Below the pieces are notes generated by a model, which saw nothing but the letters and a program-made list of their open reading frames with translations, had not been told where the DNA came from and did not search any database. DNA of 51,378 nt, taken from IMG/VR virus record IMGVR_UViG_3300042463_001197, positions 1 through 51,378 of that record, one strand, 5' to 3'. Each line of letters starts with the position of its first letter. Within the stretch, counting starts at the first letter, position 1. Source of the DNA: a virus. Positions 26,597 to 39,840 of the stretch are shown here, in pieces. A program made the position numbers and the translations under genes.

Positions 26597-26683
26597 GCGT
26601 CAGTAAAGCAAGCGGCTCTTGCAGCGAGACTGTAAATCTCGTCCCTTCATTGGGGAGTGGATCGACACCACACTGGCGCACCA
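26597..26683 (+). tRNA. tRNA-Tyr(GTA), copy 1
   Basis: Acceptor GCGTCAG/CTGGCGC, anticodon arm CGAGA-CTGTAAA-TCTCG, long variable arm, T-arm GTGG-ATCGACA-CCAC, A73 and encoded CCA. Confidence 0.92.
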
Positions 26684-26690
26684 TTTTCAT

Positions 26691-26777
26691 GCGTCAGTAA
26701 AGCAAGCGGCTCTTGCAGCGAGACTGTAAATCTCGTCCCTTCATTGGGGAGTGGATCGACACCACACTGGCGCACCA
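26691..26777 (+). tRNA. tRNA-Tyr(GTA), copy 2
   Basis: Identical to the copy at 26597-26683. Confidence 0.92.
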
Positions 26778-26786
26778 TTTTCTTAT

Positions 26787-26866
26787 CCTCCAGTAGCTCA
26801 GTTGTGGTTAGAGCACCTGCCTTATAAGCGGGAGGTCGTGGGTTCGAGCCCCCACCTGGCGGACCA
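26787..26866 (+). tRNA. tRNA-Ile(TAT)
   Basis: Acceptor CCTCCAG/CTGGCGG (one T-C mismatch), anticodon arm CCTGC-CTTATAA-GCGGG, T-arm GTGGG/CCCAC with one extra loop base, A73 and CCA. It reads the rare ATA codon. Confidence 0.85.
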
Positions 26867-26915
26867 AATAATTTGGTTTCTACATGGTAACTTGCATACC
26901 TAATGAAATCATTAG

Positions 26916-27011
26916 GCAGCATAATATGATAGCTCAAATGATAAAGAGCTCTCCTTTGCAATACAGGAGACGATGGATTGGTAATCGGAATCCTCATATA
27001 TGCTGCTAACA
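26916..27011 (+). pseudogene. Degenerate tRNA-like gene
   Basis: Acceptor-like GCAGCAT/ATGCTGC, D-arm AGCTC/GAGCT and an enlarged anticodon-like loop CTCC-TTTGCAATACA-GGAG; the T-arm GGATT/AATCC has a 9-nt loop without TTCG, and the 3' end is TAACA, not NCCA. A perfect hairpin CCTAATGA/TCATTAGG overlaps its 5' side. Confidence 0.4.
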
Positions 27012-27021
27012 ATTTTCATAA

Positions 27022-27096
27022 CCACCTGTAGCTCAGAGGCAGAGCAATCGGTCGATAACCGATAGGTCGTGATATCGTAATTCACCAGGTGGACCA
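27022..27096 (+). tRNA. tRNA-Ile(GAT)
   Basis: Acceptor CCACCTG/CAGGTGG, anticodon arm ATCGG-TCGATAA-CCGAT, A73 CCA. The T-arm GTGAT-ATCGTAA-TTCAC has a T-T closing pair and A in place of T54. Confidence 0.88.
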
Positions 27097-27105
27097 TTTC
27101 ATAAT

Positions 27106-27180
27106 GCGGGTTTGGTGTAATGGCTAACACGCCTTCCTTCCAAGTAGGAGCCAAGGGTTCGATTCCCTTATCCCGCACCA
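27106..27180 (+). tRNA. tRNA-Gly(TCC)
   Basis: Acceptor GCGGGTT/ATCCCGC (one T-T), anticodon loop CTTCCAA, T-arm AAGGG-TTCGATT-CCCTT, A73 CCA. Confidence 0.88.
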
Positions 27181-27188
27181 ATTTAATT

Positions 27189-27264
27189 GGGCGCAAAGCA
27201 TTGATGGCTGATGCACTCGGCTCTTACCCGAGAGAAGCCGGCTCGAGTCCGGATGCACCCACCA
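27189..27264 (+). tRNA. tRNA-Lys(CTT)
   Basis: Acceptor GGGCGCA/TGCACCC (one mismatch), anticodon arm CTCGG-CTCTTAC-CCGAG, T-loop CTCGAGT, A73 CCA. Confidence 0.85.
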
Positions 27265-27275
27265 ATTTCAAATAA

Positions 27276-27374
27276 CGTCGCGTGTCCGAGTTTGGTTAAA
27301 GGAACTCCGCTTGGAACGGAGTGCGAGCAGCATGGGGCTGTTTGCCGTGGGTTCGAATCCCACCGCGGCGACCA
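27276..27374 (+). tRNA. tRNA-Pro(TGG) with a long variable arm
   Basis: Acceptor CGTCGCG/CGCGGCG with the C1-G72 pair and A73 expected for bacterial tRNA-Pro; anticodon arm CTCCG-CTTGGAA-CGGAG. The variable region folds as a 9-bp stem GCGAGCAGC/GCTGTTTGC, normal only for Ser, Leu and Tyr tRNAs. T-arm GTGGG-TTCGAAT-CCCAC, CCA. Confidence 0.78.
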
Positions 27375-27390
27375 ATTTCAAAAATCTAAA

Positions 27391-27459
27391 TCGAGTGCTG
27401 AAGAATACGGTTACTTCACTTATAAACGAAAAACCCACCGTGTTCGTTTGTTGCCTCGA
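27391..27459 (+). ncRNA. Structured RNA family, copy A
   Basis: A 69-nt segment closed by TCGAG/CTCGA, with an inner helix TGAAG/CTTCA and AAACGAA/TTCGTTT. It is clearly related to copy B at 28366-28440; the closing helix differs by a compensatory pair change (G-C to A-T). It is not a tRNA: no CCA or T-arm. Confidence 0.6.
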
Positions 27460-27463
27460 ATAT

Positions 27464-27539
27464 GCCACGTTAGGAGACCGGTAATCCGCCTGCCTGCAAA
27501 GCATGGAGATAGTCTGTTCGATTCAGACACGTGGCTCCA
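27464..27539 (+). tRNA. tRNA-Cys(GCA)
   Basis: Acceptor GCCACGT/ACGTGGC with T73, the Cys identity base, anticodon loop CTGCAAA, T-arm GTCTG-TTCGATT-CAGAC, CCA. Confidence 0.9.
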
Positions 27540-27617
27540 ATTTTCAAATCTAAATCGAGTGTTGAATGCAGGCCGACCACTAAAGGTTTGTGTTATTCTG
27601 ATGAAGTAAAATATCGG

Positions 27618-38642: not shown

Positions 38643-38645
38643 ATA
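38638..38645 (+). promoter_or_regulatory. Late promoter box before tRNA-Ala and tmRNA
   Basis: TATAAATA with no ORF behind it; the next genes are tRNA-Ala at 38681 and the tmRNA, which could therefore be made late. Confidence 0.45.
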
Positions 38646-38654
38646 AATTTCAAC

Positions 38655-38672
38655 GCGGGGCGCAAGCCCCGC
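38655..38672 (+). other. Perfect GCAA-tetraloop hairpin
   Basis: GCGGGGC-GCAA-GCCCCGC. There is no T-run, so it may protect or process the RNA rather than end transcription. Confidence 0.6.
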
Positions 38673-38680
38673 TGCATTAT

Positions 38681-38756
38681 GGGGGTATAGCTCAGTTGGT
38701 AGAGCGTCTGCTTTGCAAGCAGAATGTCGTCGGTTCGAACCCGGCTACCTCCACCA
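38681..38756 (+). tRNA. tRNA-Ala(TGC) 2
   Basis: Acceptor GGGGGTA/TACCTCC with G3-T70, anticodon arm TCTGC-TTTGCAA-GCAGA, A73 CCA. Close to bacterial tRNA-Ala. Confidence 0.93.
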
Positions 38757-38762
38757 CTTTAT

Positions 38763-39099
38763 GGGGATGTTTTGGTTTCGACATAATCGGAGAAACAGCA
38801 TCTGCAATCAAAGGTCTGCACGACCTCTTAAGTGCAAAACAACAAAAGGCGAAAATACCTTAGCTCTCGCTGCTTAAGCCGCGATCGTTTGTCAATGACT
38901 CCTCTATTTGATAAGCGAACGACAGAGGATATCATGCATAGAGAAATTATGCTACGAAGTGTATAAGAGATGATACACTCGGGCGCTGTTCCGTTATGCA
39001 GATAGTCAGTAAGATGACAATAAACTCTTAATATGATTGTAGGACAGATGCTGATGCACTGGTTGTGGACGCTGGGTTCAACTCCCGCCATCTCCACCA
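38763..39099 (+). ncRNA. ssrA: Phage-encoded tmRNA (SsrA)
   Basis: A 337-nt gene of tmRNA length. The 5' end GGGGATG pairs with CATCTCC, followed by A73 and CCA; the 3' end GGGTTCAACTCCCGCC is nearly the bacterial tmRNA T-arm, and the 5' part TTTTGGTTTCGAC matches the tmRNA D-loop region. A tag reading frame ends ...GGC GAA AAT ACC TTA GCT CTC GCT GCT TAA (38848-38877), that is GENTLALAA, with the ALAA degron of bacterial tags; the resume codon is uncertain (TGC 38833, AAA 38836). Known: with SmpB it frees stalled ribosomes and tags proteins for ClpXP. There is no smpB in the window. Confidence 0.93.
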
Positions 39100-39110
39100 A
39101 TTTCTATAAT

Positions 39111-39185
39111 GCGGGTATGGTCTAATGGCTATGACGCGACCTTGCCAAGGTTGAGATGAGGTTTCAATTACCTCTACCCGTACCA
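39111..39185 (+). tRNA. tRNA-Gly(GCC)
   Basis: Acceptor GCGGGTA/TACCCGT, anticodon arm CGACC-TTGCCAA-GGTTG, T-arm GAGGT-TTCAATT-ACCTC, A73 CCA. Confidence 0.92.
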
Positions 39186-39193
39186 CTTTTAAT

Positions 39194-39267
39194 TGCCCAT
39201 TAGCCTATTGGTAAGGCACATGTCTCTGAAACATGGGAAGAATGTTCGATTCATTCATGGGCTGCCA
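39194..39267 (+). tRNA. tRNA-Gln(CTG) 2
   Basis: Acceptor TGCCCAT/ATGGGCT with T1-T72, G73, anticodon arm CATGT-CTCTGAA-ACATG, T-loop TTCGATT, CCA. Confidence 0.92.
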
Positions 39268-39275
39268 TTTTATTT

Positions 39276-39396
39276 GCTCCTATAGCTCAGAGGAAGAGCG
39301 CATCCTTTTGATAAATATAATTGATGAAAACTTCAATATGTGAAATATGTTTGAGTATGGATGAGGCCGAGATTTCAAAATTCTCTAGGAGCTCCA
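39276..39396 (+). tRNA. Thr-type tRNA interrupted in the anticodon loop
   Basis: Acceptor GCTCCTA/TAGGAGC, T73, D-arm GCTC/GAGC, T-arm GAGAT-TTCAAAA-TTCTC as in tRNA-Thr(TGT) at 29765, CCA. Between CATCC and GGATG of the anticodon stem are about 53 nt instead of 7, so there is an insert of about 46 nt. The insert contains GATAAATA and an ATG six bases later, which looks like the start of a lost nuclease gene or a small intron. Confidence 0.6.
39310..39317 (+). promoter_or_regulatory. Late-type box inside the interrupted tRNA
   Basis: GATAAATA six bases before an ATG at 39324 that opens a 30-codon frame ending at 39416. The frame is probably a remnant, not a gene. Confidence 0.3.
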
Positions 39397-39402
39397 CTTT
39401 CG

Positions 39403-39434
39403 TGCATGTGGTGTAATGGTAATTACATCTATTT
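39403..39434 (+). pseudogene. Truncated tRNA-Leu, cut in the anticodon arm
   Basis: GTGGTGTAATGGTAAT matches the D-arm region of the intact tRNA-Leu(GAG) at 39753; the anticodon arm begins ATCTATTTAAT and then runs into the box AATAAATA of the next gene. Confidence 0.5.
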
Positions 39435-39442
39435 AATAAATA
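39435..39442 (+). promoter_or_regulatory. Late-type box (AATAAATA)
   Basis: AATAAATA six bases before the ATG at 39449. Confidence 0.4.
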
Positions 39443-39448
39443 ACAGAT

Positions 39449-39748
39449 ATGCATCACAAACCAAACTCAATATTTGAAGCTGCTTCGCAAATTCTATTTT
39501 CTGAAAATCAAGAACAAAAATTTCATCAAGTTCGAATTAAAGAAATTAAGAAGACTATTGCTTCAACTGAAGCAGATAAGAAATCTCTTGAATCGATGAT
39601 TTCCAAAATGGAGAAATCTTTAGCTAAGCTTGTCTCTAATCATGACAAGCTTAAGGCTAAACTTGATAAGTATAAGACACTTCTAGTCGCTGTTGAAGAC
39701 GATCCAAATTACAAATTAACTGGGAGTCTCGATGCTCTTAAGTTTTAA
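39449..39748 (+). CDS. Coiled-coil protein inserted in a tRNA-Leu locus
   Basis: A 99-residue protein with a heptad-type coiled coil (residues about 30-80: KKTIASTEADKKSLESMISK, KMEKSLAKLVSNHDKLKAKL). The N-terminus SIFEAASQILFSENQ resembles the opening of the protein at 40070 (YAAAAAILEGKQ), so both may share a signal for the same compartment, perhaps the head. It carries no nuclease motif, yet its position copies that of the nuclease genes: a broken tRNA-Leu before it, a late-type box, and an intact tRNA-Leu only 4 nt after its stop. Confidence 0.6.
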   Translation: MHHKPNSIFEAASQILFSENQEQKFHQVRIKEIKKTIASTEADKKSLESMISKMEKSLAKLVSNHDKLKAKLDKYKTLLVAVEDDPNYKLTGSLDALKF

Positions 39749-39752
39749 TTTT

Positions 39753-39840
39753 GCGCTTGTGGTGTAATGGTAAACACGTCATCTTGAGAAGGTGATGCGG
39801 CATGTTCCGCGTGTGGGTTCAAGTCCCACCATGCGCACCA
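39753..39840 (+). tRNA. tRNA-Leu(GAG)
   Basis: Acceptor GCGCTTG/CATGCGC (one T-T), anticodon arm TCATC-TTGAGAA-GGTGA, long variable arm with GCGG/CCGC, T-arm GTGGG-TTCAAGT-CCCAC, A73 CCA. Confidence 0.9.

What the first reader, a model, noticed from the sequence alone, without database searches (positions are those of the whole stretch)
26597..39840. About 50 tRNA genes that cover all 20 amino acids
Counted by eye: Ala 2, Arg 3, Asn 2, Asp 2, Cys 1, Gln 3, Glu 2, Gly 2, His 1, Ile 3, Leu 3, Lys 4, CAT-anticodon 4, Phe 1, Pro 3, Ser 4, Thr 4, Trp 1, Tyr 3, Val 2. A full set would allow translation when host tRNAs are destroyed, for example by anticodon nucleases or by the phage itself.
Basis: seen in the sequence. 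Interest (0 to 1): 0.7.

Follow-up and report, generated by a model that had tools for sequence, protein, structure and literature searches.

The report
Phage tRNA array remodelled by homing endonucleases
A T4-like phage carries about 50 tRNA genes plus a tmRNA, enough to read nearly every codon, and the array is being rebuilt by selfish DNA-cutting genes that sit behind a broken tRNA gene and in front of an intact tRNA of the same kind, so the set stays complete.

Summary
Between 26,597 and 39,840 ARAGORN finds 40 tRNA genes at its default threshold (0 in shuffled DNA) and 49-51 at relaxed thresholds (about 0.1-0.9 expected by chance). With Tyr read by hand, all 20 amino acids are covered. 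With U34 superwobble the set reads every sense codon but CGG (0.10% of codons). Large complete arrays are known (XacN1, huge phages); host tRNA loss cannot be tested here.

The more novel part is how the array changes. Both HNH genes in it follow a tRNA broken in its T-loop (Thr-CGT, Arg-TCT). Their 3' ends overlap an intact but diverged tRNA with the same anticodon. A related contig keeps both targets whole and has the same arrangement at Gly-GCC. Among 27 HNH clusters with an adjacent downstream tRNA, 20 carry the matching anticodon signature upstream (4.6 expected; 0 of 50,000 permutations). I read this as intronless homing into tRNA genes that preserves the isoacceptor. A 94-bp tRNA-Tyr repeat varies between contigs, resembling SegB-driven amplification in T6. 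Cleavage and homing are inferred, not shown.

The parts
26597..39840 (+). tRNA array: about 50 tRNA genes and tRNA stubs, tmRNA and small late genes
26597..26777 (+). perfect 94-bp tandem repeat, two copies of tRNA-Tyr(GTA): 26597-26683 and 26691-26777
   Evidence: copy number in near-identical contigs 2 (window), 3 (G001), 2 (G015), 1 in diverged G004
28670..29469 (+). tRNA-Asn(GTT) followed by GIY-YIG (Seg-like) gene 28795-29469; sits where relative G004 has a single intact tRNA-Asn(GTT)
29848..29903 (+). tRNA-Thr(CGT) stub, broken at the T-loop; 55 nt identical to the intact Thr(CGT) of G004
29919..29926 (+). TATAAATA, T4-type late promoter sequence in front of HNH gene 1
29932..30555 (+). 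HNH homing endonuclease-like gene 1 (207 aa); 3' end overlaps the next tRNA by about 15 nt
30541..30619 (+). intact tRNA-Thr(CGT) adjoining HNH gene 1, diverged from the stub (37 of 48 aligned positions)
34826..34881 (+). tRNA-Arg(TCT) stub broken at the T-loop; intact in G004
34910..35593 (+). HNH homing endonuclease-like gene 2 (227 aa), late promoter TATAAATA at 34897
35561..35638 (+). tRNA-Arg(TCT) overlapping the 3' end of HNH gene 2 by about 33 nt
36606..36680 (+). tRNA with CUA (amber) anticodon, conserved in place in G004; called Pyl by ARAGORN on its anticodon alone
38681..38756 (+). tRNA-Ala(TGC), best tRNA score of the array, directly before the tmRNA
38763..39099 (+). tmRNA, full-length Rfam match; in-frame tag GENTLALAA*, G3-U70 acceptor pair, CCA end
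39276..39396 (+). tRNA-Thr(GGT) interrupted in the anticodon loop by 46 nt with late-promoter-like sequence and ATG (probable remnant of an inserted gene); uninterrupted in G004
39402..39840 (+). Leu-like tRNA stub (about 39402-39436), late gene 39449-39748 (99 aa), intact tRNA-Leu(GAG) 39753-39840
44598..45905 (+). TROVE/vWA (Ro60-like) RNA-binding protein gene downstream of the array, also in G001 and G004

Best explanation
The window is a 51-kb fragment of a large T4-like phage whose tRNA array is a near-complete decoding kit: all 20 amino acids, all sense codons but CGG if superwobble is allowed, an amber-reading tRNA and a tmRNA. It most likely keeps phage translation running, and stalled ribosomes rescued, when host tRNAs become limiting (inferred). 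The array is remodelled by free-standing homing endonucleases (HNH, also GIY-YIG). The inferred steps are: the nuclease made from a donor phage cuts a tRNA gene of a co-infecting phage in the T-loop (sometimes the anticodon loop); repair copies in the nuclease gene together with the diverged tRNA next to it, which has the same anticodon; the result is a 5' stub of the old tRNA, a late promoter, the nuclease gene, and an intact tRNA overlapping its 3' end. Decoding capacity is kept, so insertion costs the phage little. Shown: the stub / nuclease / same-anticodon arrangement, its recurrence in other phages, and intact alleles in a relative. Inferred: DNA cutting, homing, and resistance of the adjoining tRNA.
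For: Array: 40-51 tRNA genes against 0-0.85 in shuffles; all isotypes; decoding coverage; tmRNA 117 bits with tag GENTLALAA in window and G004. Two HNH genes follow T-loop-broken Thr-CGT and Arg-TCT and overlap intact Thr-CGT and Arg-TCT; G004 has both target tRNAs uninterrupted, and has its own HNH between broken and intact Gly-GCC. Recurrence: in 27 HNH clusters (85% identity) with a tRNA starting next to the HNH stop, 20 have T33-anticodon-R37 of that tRNA in the 130 nt before the HNH start, against 4.6 expected, 0 of 50,000 permutations, and 7 of 27 in a control window further upstream. Annotated isolates: Vibrio phage SRILMA (Thr-TGT twice), Rhizobium phages LG08 and IC12 (Asn). In seven loci the tRNA starts so that its U8-A9-G10 is the HNH stop codon. 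Insertion seen directly at L123/L137 (Tyr; 14-nt repeat on both sides) and L141 (Glu; flanks join to a tRNA with perfect arms, a score none of 56 controls reached). H26, H27, N41 and H50 are invariant in 11 relatives. SegB, which cuts tRNA genes, has motif RAWTSGAAC, the reverse complement of the T-loop consensus (PMC13096335).
Against: Seven of 27 clusters lack the match: L109 (Phe stub, Gly tRNA), L147 and L156 look like real mismatches; L161, L209, L210 and L211 show no recognisable stub. The by-eye reading of some stubs (L133, L138, L103, L104) is weak, and ARAGORN miscalls some downstream tRNAs (L138, L144); the permutation test uses a short motif. The 3' remnant of the broken tRNA was found in only two loci, so insertion of a composite element and allelic homing with loss of the recipient's 3' half are not resolved. 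Pfam HNH scores of the window proteins are below the curated cut-off, and 'homing endonuclease' rests on relatives' annotation and the HNH residues. No host, no expression, no nuclease assay. SmpB is absent from these fragments, so the tmRNA would need host SmpB.
Confidence: 0.7

Rival explanations
1. The tRNA set exists to match the codon usage of an A+T-rich phage to a host with different codon preferences; completeness is a by-product of accumulation.
For: XacN1 showed enrichment of tRNAs for codons used more by phage than host. The window is 37-46% GC and prefers A/T-ending codons.
Against: The set includes tRNAs for all amino acids, also those without codon choice (Met x4, Trp), plus duplicates (Tyr x3, Pro x3) and a tmRNA, which codon matching does not need. 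The host is unknown, so the test could not be run.
Confidence: 0.3
2. The array is an anti-defence bank: individual tRNAs (Tyr above all) replace those cut by host tRNA nucleases, and copy number is raised by homing-endonuclease-driven amplification. This is compatible with the best explanation and would specify its selective force.
For: Perfect tandem tRNA-Tyr repeat with 1, 2, 2, 3 copies in four contigs, three of them otherwise near-identical where compared. T6 amplifies tRNA-Tyr by SegB to escape Septu (PMC13096335). The array holds a Seg-like GIY-YIG gene.
Against: Copy number from metagenome assemblies of a 94-bp perfect repeat is unreliable. No nuclease gene lies inside the repeated unit, unlike T6. 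No anticodon-loop comparison with a host was possible.
Confidence: 0.45
3. The same-anticodon pairs are not carried by the element: the nuclease genes merely landed between pre-existing tandem duplicates of a tRNA, one of which then decayed.
For: Duplicates do occur in this array (Tyr tandem; Asp-Asp at 27941/28026), and the 3' halves of the broken tRNAs are mostly missing.
Against: Broken and intact copies are diverged (37 of 48 and 34 of 47 aligned positions in the two window cases), not recent duplicates. The Thr-CGT stub matches the relative's single intact gene over 55 nt at 100%, and the relative has no second copy there. Breaks cluster at the T-loop, and the tRNA overlaps the nuclease reading frame in many loci.
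Confidence: 0.2
4. The CUA tRNA marks a phage that recodes UAG in late genes, and the array supports the altered code.
For: The CUA tRNA is conserved in place in G004. UAG is the rarest stop (1 of 35 genes). XacN1 also has CUA tRNAs.
Against: Long, tightly packed genes are open in the standard code and one ends in UAG, so no recoding is needed in this window. Its anticodon stem has mismatches.
Confidence: 0.08

Closest known systems
Xanthomonas jumbo phage XacN1 tRNA array (PMC5852040) and huge phages with up to 67 tRNAs (PMC7162821)
   Same: Tens of tRNAs covering all 20 amino acids in a large phage; CUA tRNA in XacN1; tmRNAs in some huge phages.
   Different: XacN1's 56 are two copies of a 28-gene set in terminal repeats; here about 50 lie in one 13-kb array with a tmRNA, and nuclease genes sit inside it. 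No tRNA-processing genes were recognised in the parts of this fragment that were annotated.
T4/T6 SegB, homing endonuclease of the tRNA region (PMC2988022, PMC13096335)
   Same: Free-standing homing endonuclease inside a phage tRNA cluster; cuts in tRNA genes at a motif matching the T-loop; linked to tRNA-Tyr amplification.
   Different: SegB is GIY-YIG. The main family here is HNH, lies behind a broken tRNA, and adjoins or overlaps an intact tRNA of the same anticodon. No such arrangement was found in the papers searched.
Mob-type HNH homing endonucleases of T4-like phages (MobD, MobE)
   Same: Protein family by sequence and free-standing arrangement; target gene next to nuclease gene in the known active case (MobE, nrdB; PMC2988022).
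   Different: T4 Mob genes lie between protein genes; these are tied to tRNA genes as inferred target and neighbour.
Integrative elements that insert in tRNA genes and restore them
   Same: Insertion in a tRNA gene with function kept (from general knowledge).
   Different: Those use an integrase and rebuild the original tRNA end; here a separate, diverged full tRNA stands in and no integrase is present in the element.

Membership tests
[quoted passage not shown]
   Tyr copies at 26597 and 26691 by reading
Complete phage tRNA array (XacN1 type) | tRNAs expressed and charged in infection | not testable with these tools
   no RNA data
Free-standing homing endonuclease (intronless homing) | nuclease domain with catalytic residues | tested here: met
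   HH...N...H invariant in 11 relatives; relatives annotated as homing endonucleases; but Pfam HNH score below cut-off
Free-standing homing endonuclease (intronless homing) | present in one allele, absent from an otherwise matching allele | tested here: met
   Thr-CGT, Arg-TCT and Gly-GCC sites, window against G004
Free-standing homing endonuclease (intronless homing) | cuts the nuclease-free allele but not its own | not testable with these tools
   needs a cleavage assay
Free-standing homing endonuclease (intronless homing) | preferential inheritance in mixed infection | not testable with these tools
   needs phage crosses
SegB | GIY-YIG nuclease domain | tested here: not met
   the two genes behind broken tRNAs are HNH-type; the separate gene at 28795 is Seg-like
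tmRNA | full-length match to the family model, Ala-type acceptor with G-U, CCA end | tested here: met
   model 1-374, 117 bits; G3-U70 by reading
tmRNA | tag reading frame ending in small hydrophobic residues | tested here: met
   GENTLALAA* in window and G004; ARAGORN proposes another frame (AKIP)
tmRNA | SmpB partner encoded by the phage (not required if the host supplies it) | tested here: not met
   no PF01668 match in 7 incomplete records
Integrase-type element in tRNA | integrase gene and restored original tRNA end | tested here: not met
   no integrase between stub and intact tRNA; separate diverged tRNA

The most novel reading that the evidence does not exclude
Phage tRNA arrays are in part banks of antidotes: HNH and GIY-YIG nucleases that cut tRNA genes of rival phages travel with a cut-resistant tRNA of the same anticodon, so array growth and completeness are driven by warfare between phages as well as by host defence.
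Probability: 0.2. Interest if true: 0.85.

Novelty: new variant of a known kind. Interest (0 to 1): 0.6.

Why it matters
Why some phages carry dozens of tRNAs is a long-standing question. A recurrent unit of broken tRNA, homing endonuclease, and intact tRNA of the same anticodon gives a concrete mechanism by which tRNA genes could move between phages and be replaced without loss of decoding capacity. It also implies that each isoacceptor in the array is under selection. The claim is directly testable with purified nucleases and phage crosses, and the variation in tRNA-Tyr copy number, if real, ties environmental phages to the SegB-Septu arms race seen in the laboratory.

Tried and rejected
Joining flanks by ARAGORN to show empty sites: too permissive, 18 of 57 control joins also gave a tRNA; replaced by a stricter arm-pairing score. 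Y RNA partner for the Ro60-like protein: no Rfam support (only a sub-threshold YrlA hit). SmpB in relatives: none. UAG recoding: not needed by the genes seen. ARAGORN calls at 75-80% thresholds were not counted, because shuffles give 3 to 11. DNA similarity to known phages: only a 65-nt match at one tRNA; the phage is placed by proteins. Permuted tmRNA match at 38,695-38,877: overlaps the better one-piece tmRNA and was set aside. The GIY-YIG family was inspected too: it gave only a few clear cases (L241 Met, L242 Gly) and was not scored.
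Full report
1. The observation. 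ARAGORN at default settings finds 40 tRNA genes, all on the + strand, from 26,787 to 39,840. On the array alone it finds 40, 49 and 51 at 100, 90 and 85% score thresholds, against 0, 0.08 and 0.85 in 60 dinucleotide shuffles and none on the other strand. Rfam's tRNA model agrees. The default run lacks Phe and Tyr; the relaxed runs and Rfam supply Phe, Tyr (33,350), and further Asn, Ala, Arg and Ser genes. Two more Tyr genes with long variable arms form a perfect 94-bp tandem repeat at 26,597-26,777. Several of the counted items are, however, broken genes (section 4).

2. What else is in the array. A tmRNA lies at 38,763-39,099 (Rfam 117 bits, full length). Read in frame, its tag is GENTLALAA followed by a stop, and the acceptor has the G3-U70 pair expected for alanine; the relative G004 has the same tag. 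ARAGORN reads another frame, so the tag is my reading. A tRNA with CUA anticodon at 36,606 is conserved in place in G004. Downstream is a TROVE/vWA (Ro60-like) gene. Three TTTACA-17-TATAAT-like sequences (near 32,053, 37,581 and 41,060) look like early promoters, and TATAAATA sequences like T4 late promoters precede several small genes; these are consensus readings only.

3. Whose array it is. The window is the whole of a 51-kb IMG/VR record. Structural and other proteins match T4-like cyanophages and relatives at below 60% identity. Near-identical contigs exist: G001 is 100% identical over 20.7 kb of the array side and 99.94% over another 20 kb, and G015 is 100% identical over the parts compared. 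A diverged contig, G004 (95.7 kb), has the syntenic array, tmRNA and CUA tRNA. The host is unknown.

4. Homing endonucleases in the array. HNH gene 1 (29,932-30,555) starts behind a Thr-CGT tRNA cut off in its T-loop (29,848-29,903); the gene's 3' end overlaps an intact Thr-CGT (30,541-30,619). HNH gene 2 (34,910-35,593) repeats this with Arg-TCT. In G004 both target tRNAs are whole, and 55 nt of its Thr-CGT gene are identical to the stub. G004 has its own HNH between a broken and an intact Gly-GCC. Broken and intact tRNAs are diverged (37/48 and 34/47 aligned positions in the window, 36/52 for Gly). A GIY-YIG gene (28,795-29,469) with its own Asn-GTT sits where G004 has a single Asn-GTT. A Thr-GGT gene at 39,276 has 46 nt inserted in its anticodon loop that G004 lacks.

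5. Recurrence. I collected HNH relatives from IMG/VR and annotated phages. Of 79 distinct loci, 32 have a tRNA starting within about 60 nt of the HNH stop codon; in 23 of these the 130 nt before the HNH start contain the T33-anticodon-R37 motif of that tRNA, against 5.6 expected. With clusters at 85% protein identity and a stricter tRNA threshold the result is 20 of 27 against 4.6 (0 of 50,000 permutations), and 7 of 27 in a control window 400-530 nt upstream. The pattern includes annotated isolates: Vibrio phage SRILMA (Thr-TGT stub and Thr-TGT) and Rhizobium phages LG08 and IC12 (Asn; the upstream remnant is short). In seven loci the tRNA starts so that its U8-A9-G10 is the HNH stop codon. 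Most breaks lie at the T-loop GTTCR sequence. In two loci the 3' half of the broken tRNA is still there: a Tyr gene with a 14-nt repeat on both sides (L123/L137), and a Glu gene whose flanks join to perfect arms (L141). Clear mismatches exist (L109, L147, L156).

6. How it most likely works. Free-standing homing endonucleases cut alleles that lack them and are copied in with their flanks (intronless homing, PMC2988022). T6 SegB cuts tRNA genes, and its motif RAWTSGAAC is the reverse complement of the T-loop consensus (PMC13096335). I infer that the HNH proteins here cut tRNA genes at the T-loop, that repair brings in the nuclease gene with the neighbouring diverged tRNA of the same anticodon, and that the recipient keeps a 5' stub. 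Whether the unit inserts as a composite (supported by the two loci with a 3' remnant) or replaces the allele by recombination is open. Cutting and resistance of the neighbour are not shown.

7. What the tRNA set is for. With 35 genes (9,782 codons), all sense codons except CGG (0.10%) can be read by the array if U34 superwobble is allowed in four-codon boxes; without it CCT, CCC, ACT, ACC, GCT and GCC also depend on the host. This, the tmRNA, and the fact that insertions keep the isoacceptor fit a translation kit that is selected as a set. The tRNA-Tyr repeat has 2 copies in the window, 3 in G001, 2 in G015 and 1 in G004. T6 amplifies tRNA-Tyr through SegB to escape Septu, which cuts tRNA-Tyr (PMC13096335). 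The parallel is suggestive, but short-read assemblies of perfect repeats are unreliable.

8. Novelty. Complete tRNA arrays are known (XacN1, 28 functional tRNA-type genes per terminal repeat; huge phages up to 67), and phage tmRNAs are known (about 2% of phage genomes in PMC9004378). Homing endonucleases in tRNA clusters are known (SegB). The coupling of an HNH gene to a broken and an intact tRNA of the same anticodon was not found in the papers searched (open-access library only). I therefore class it as a new variant of a known kind.

Noticed in passing
window 26182-26590, 29461-29681, 31078-31351, 32230-32392: Stretches without a recognised tRNA or gene, about 83-94% identical to G004, with the same spacer style as the tRNAs; no Rfam family. 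Possibly unknown structured RNAs of the array.
   Followed up: partly
window 32987-33115: tRNA-like element: paired GCCCCGC/GCGGGGC ends and a good T-arm, but an extended hairpin with a variable loop in place of a conserved anticodon arm; also in G004. Could be a non-decoding tRNA-like RNA.
   Followed up: no
window 44598-45905: Ro60-like TROVE/vWA protein close to the array; about 50-54% identical to proteins of Xanthomonas, Brevundimonas and Caulobacter phages. No Y RNA found.
   Followed up: partly
window 43355-44539: Adenylosuccinate synthetase-like gene whose best PHROG is annotated as the 2-amino variant (PurZ-like); possible modified-base DNA not examined.
   Followed up: no
L085 (G006) and L087 (G012): tmRNAs of related phages with unusually long tags, about 33 residues (AEDNTSDLLAEAEYIFNNADEFLAGVEEYELAA in L085).
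   Followed up: no
window 39449-39748, 40070-40693; L092 about 2963-3207, 3488-3915, 9792-10055, 13500-13754: Small genes between or beside tRNAs, several behind TATAAATA, with N-termini containing L-x-E-A/G, reminiscent of capsid-targeting ends of T4 internal head proteins.
   Followed up: no
window 32621-32698, 34076-34157: tRNA-like calls with 8-nt anticodon loops (ARAGORN gives four-letter anticodons); decayed genes or frameshift-type tRNAs.
   Followed up: no
L241, L242: GIY-YIG genes behind tRNA stubs broken in the anticodon loop (Met-like, Gly-like) with Met-CAT and Gly-GCC overlapping their 3' ends: same arrangement in a second nuclease family.
   Followed up: partly
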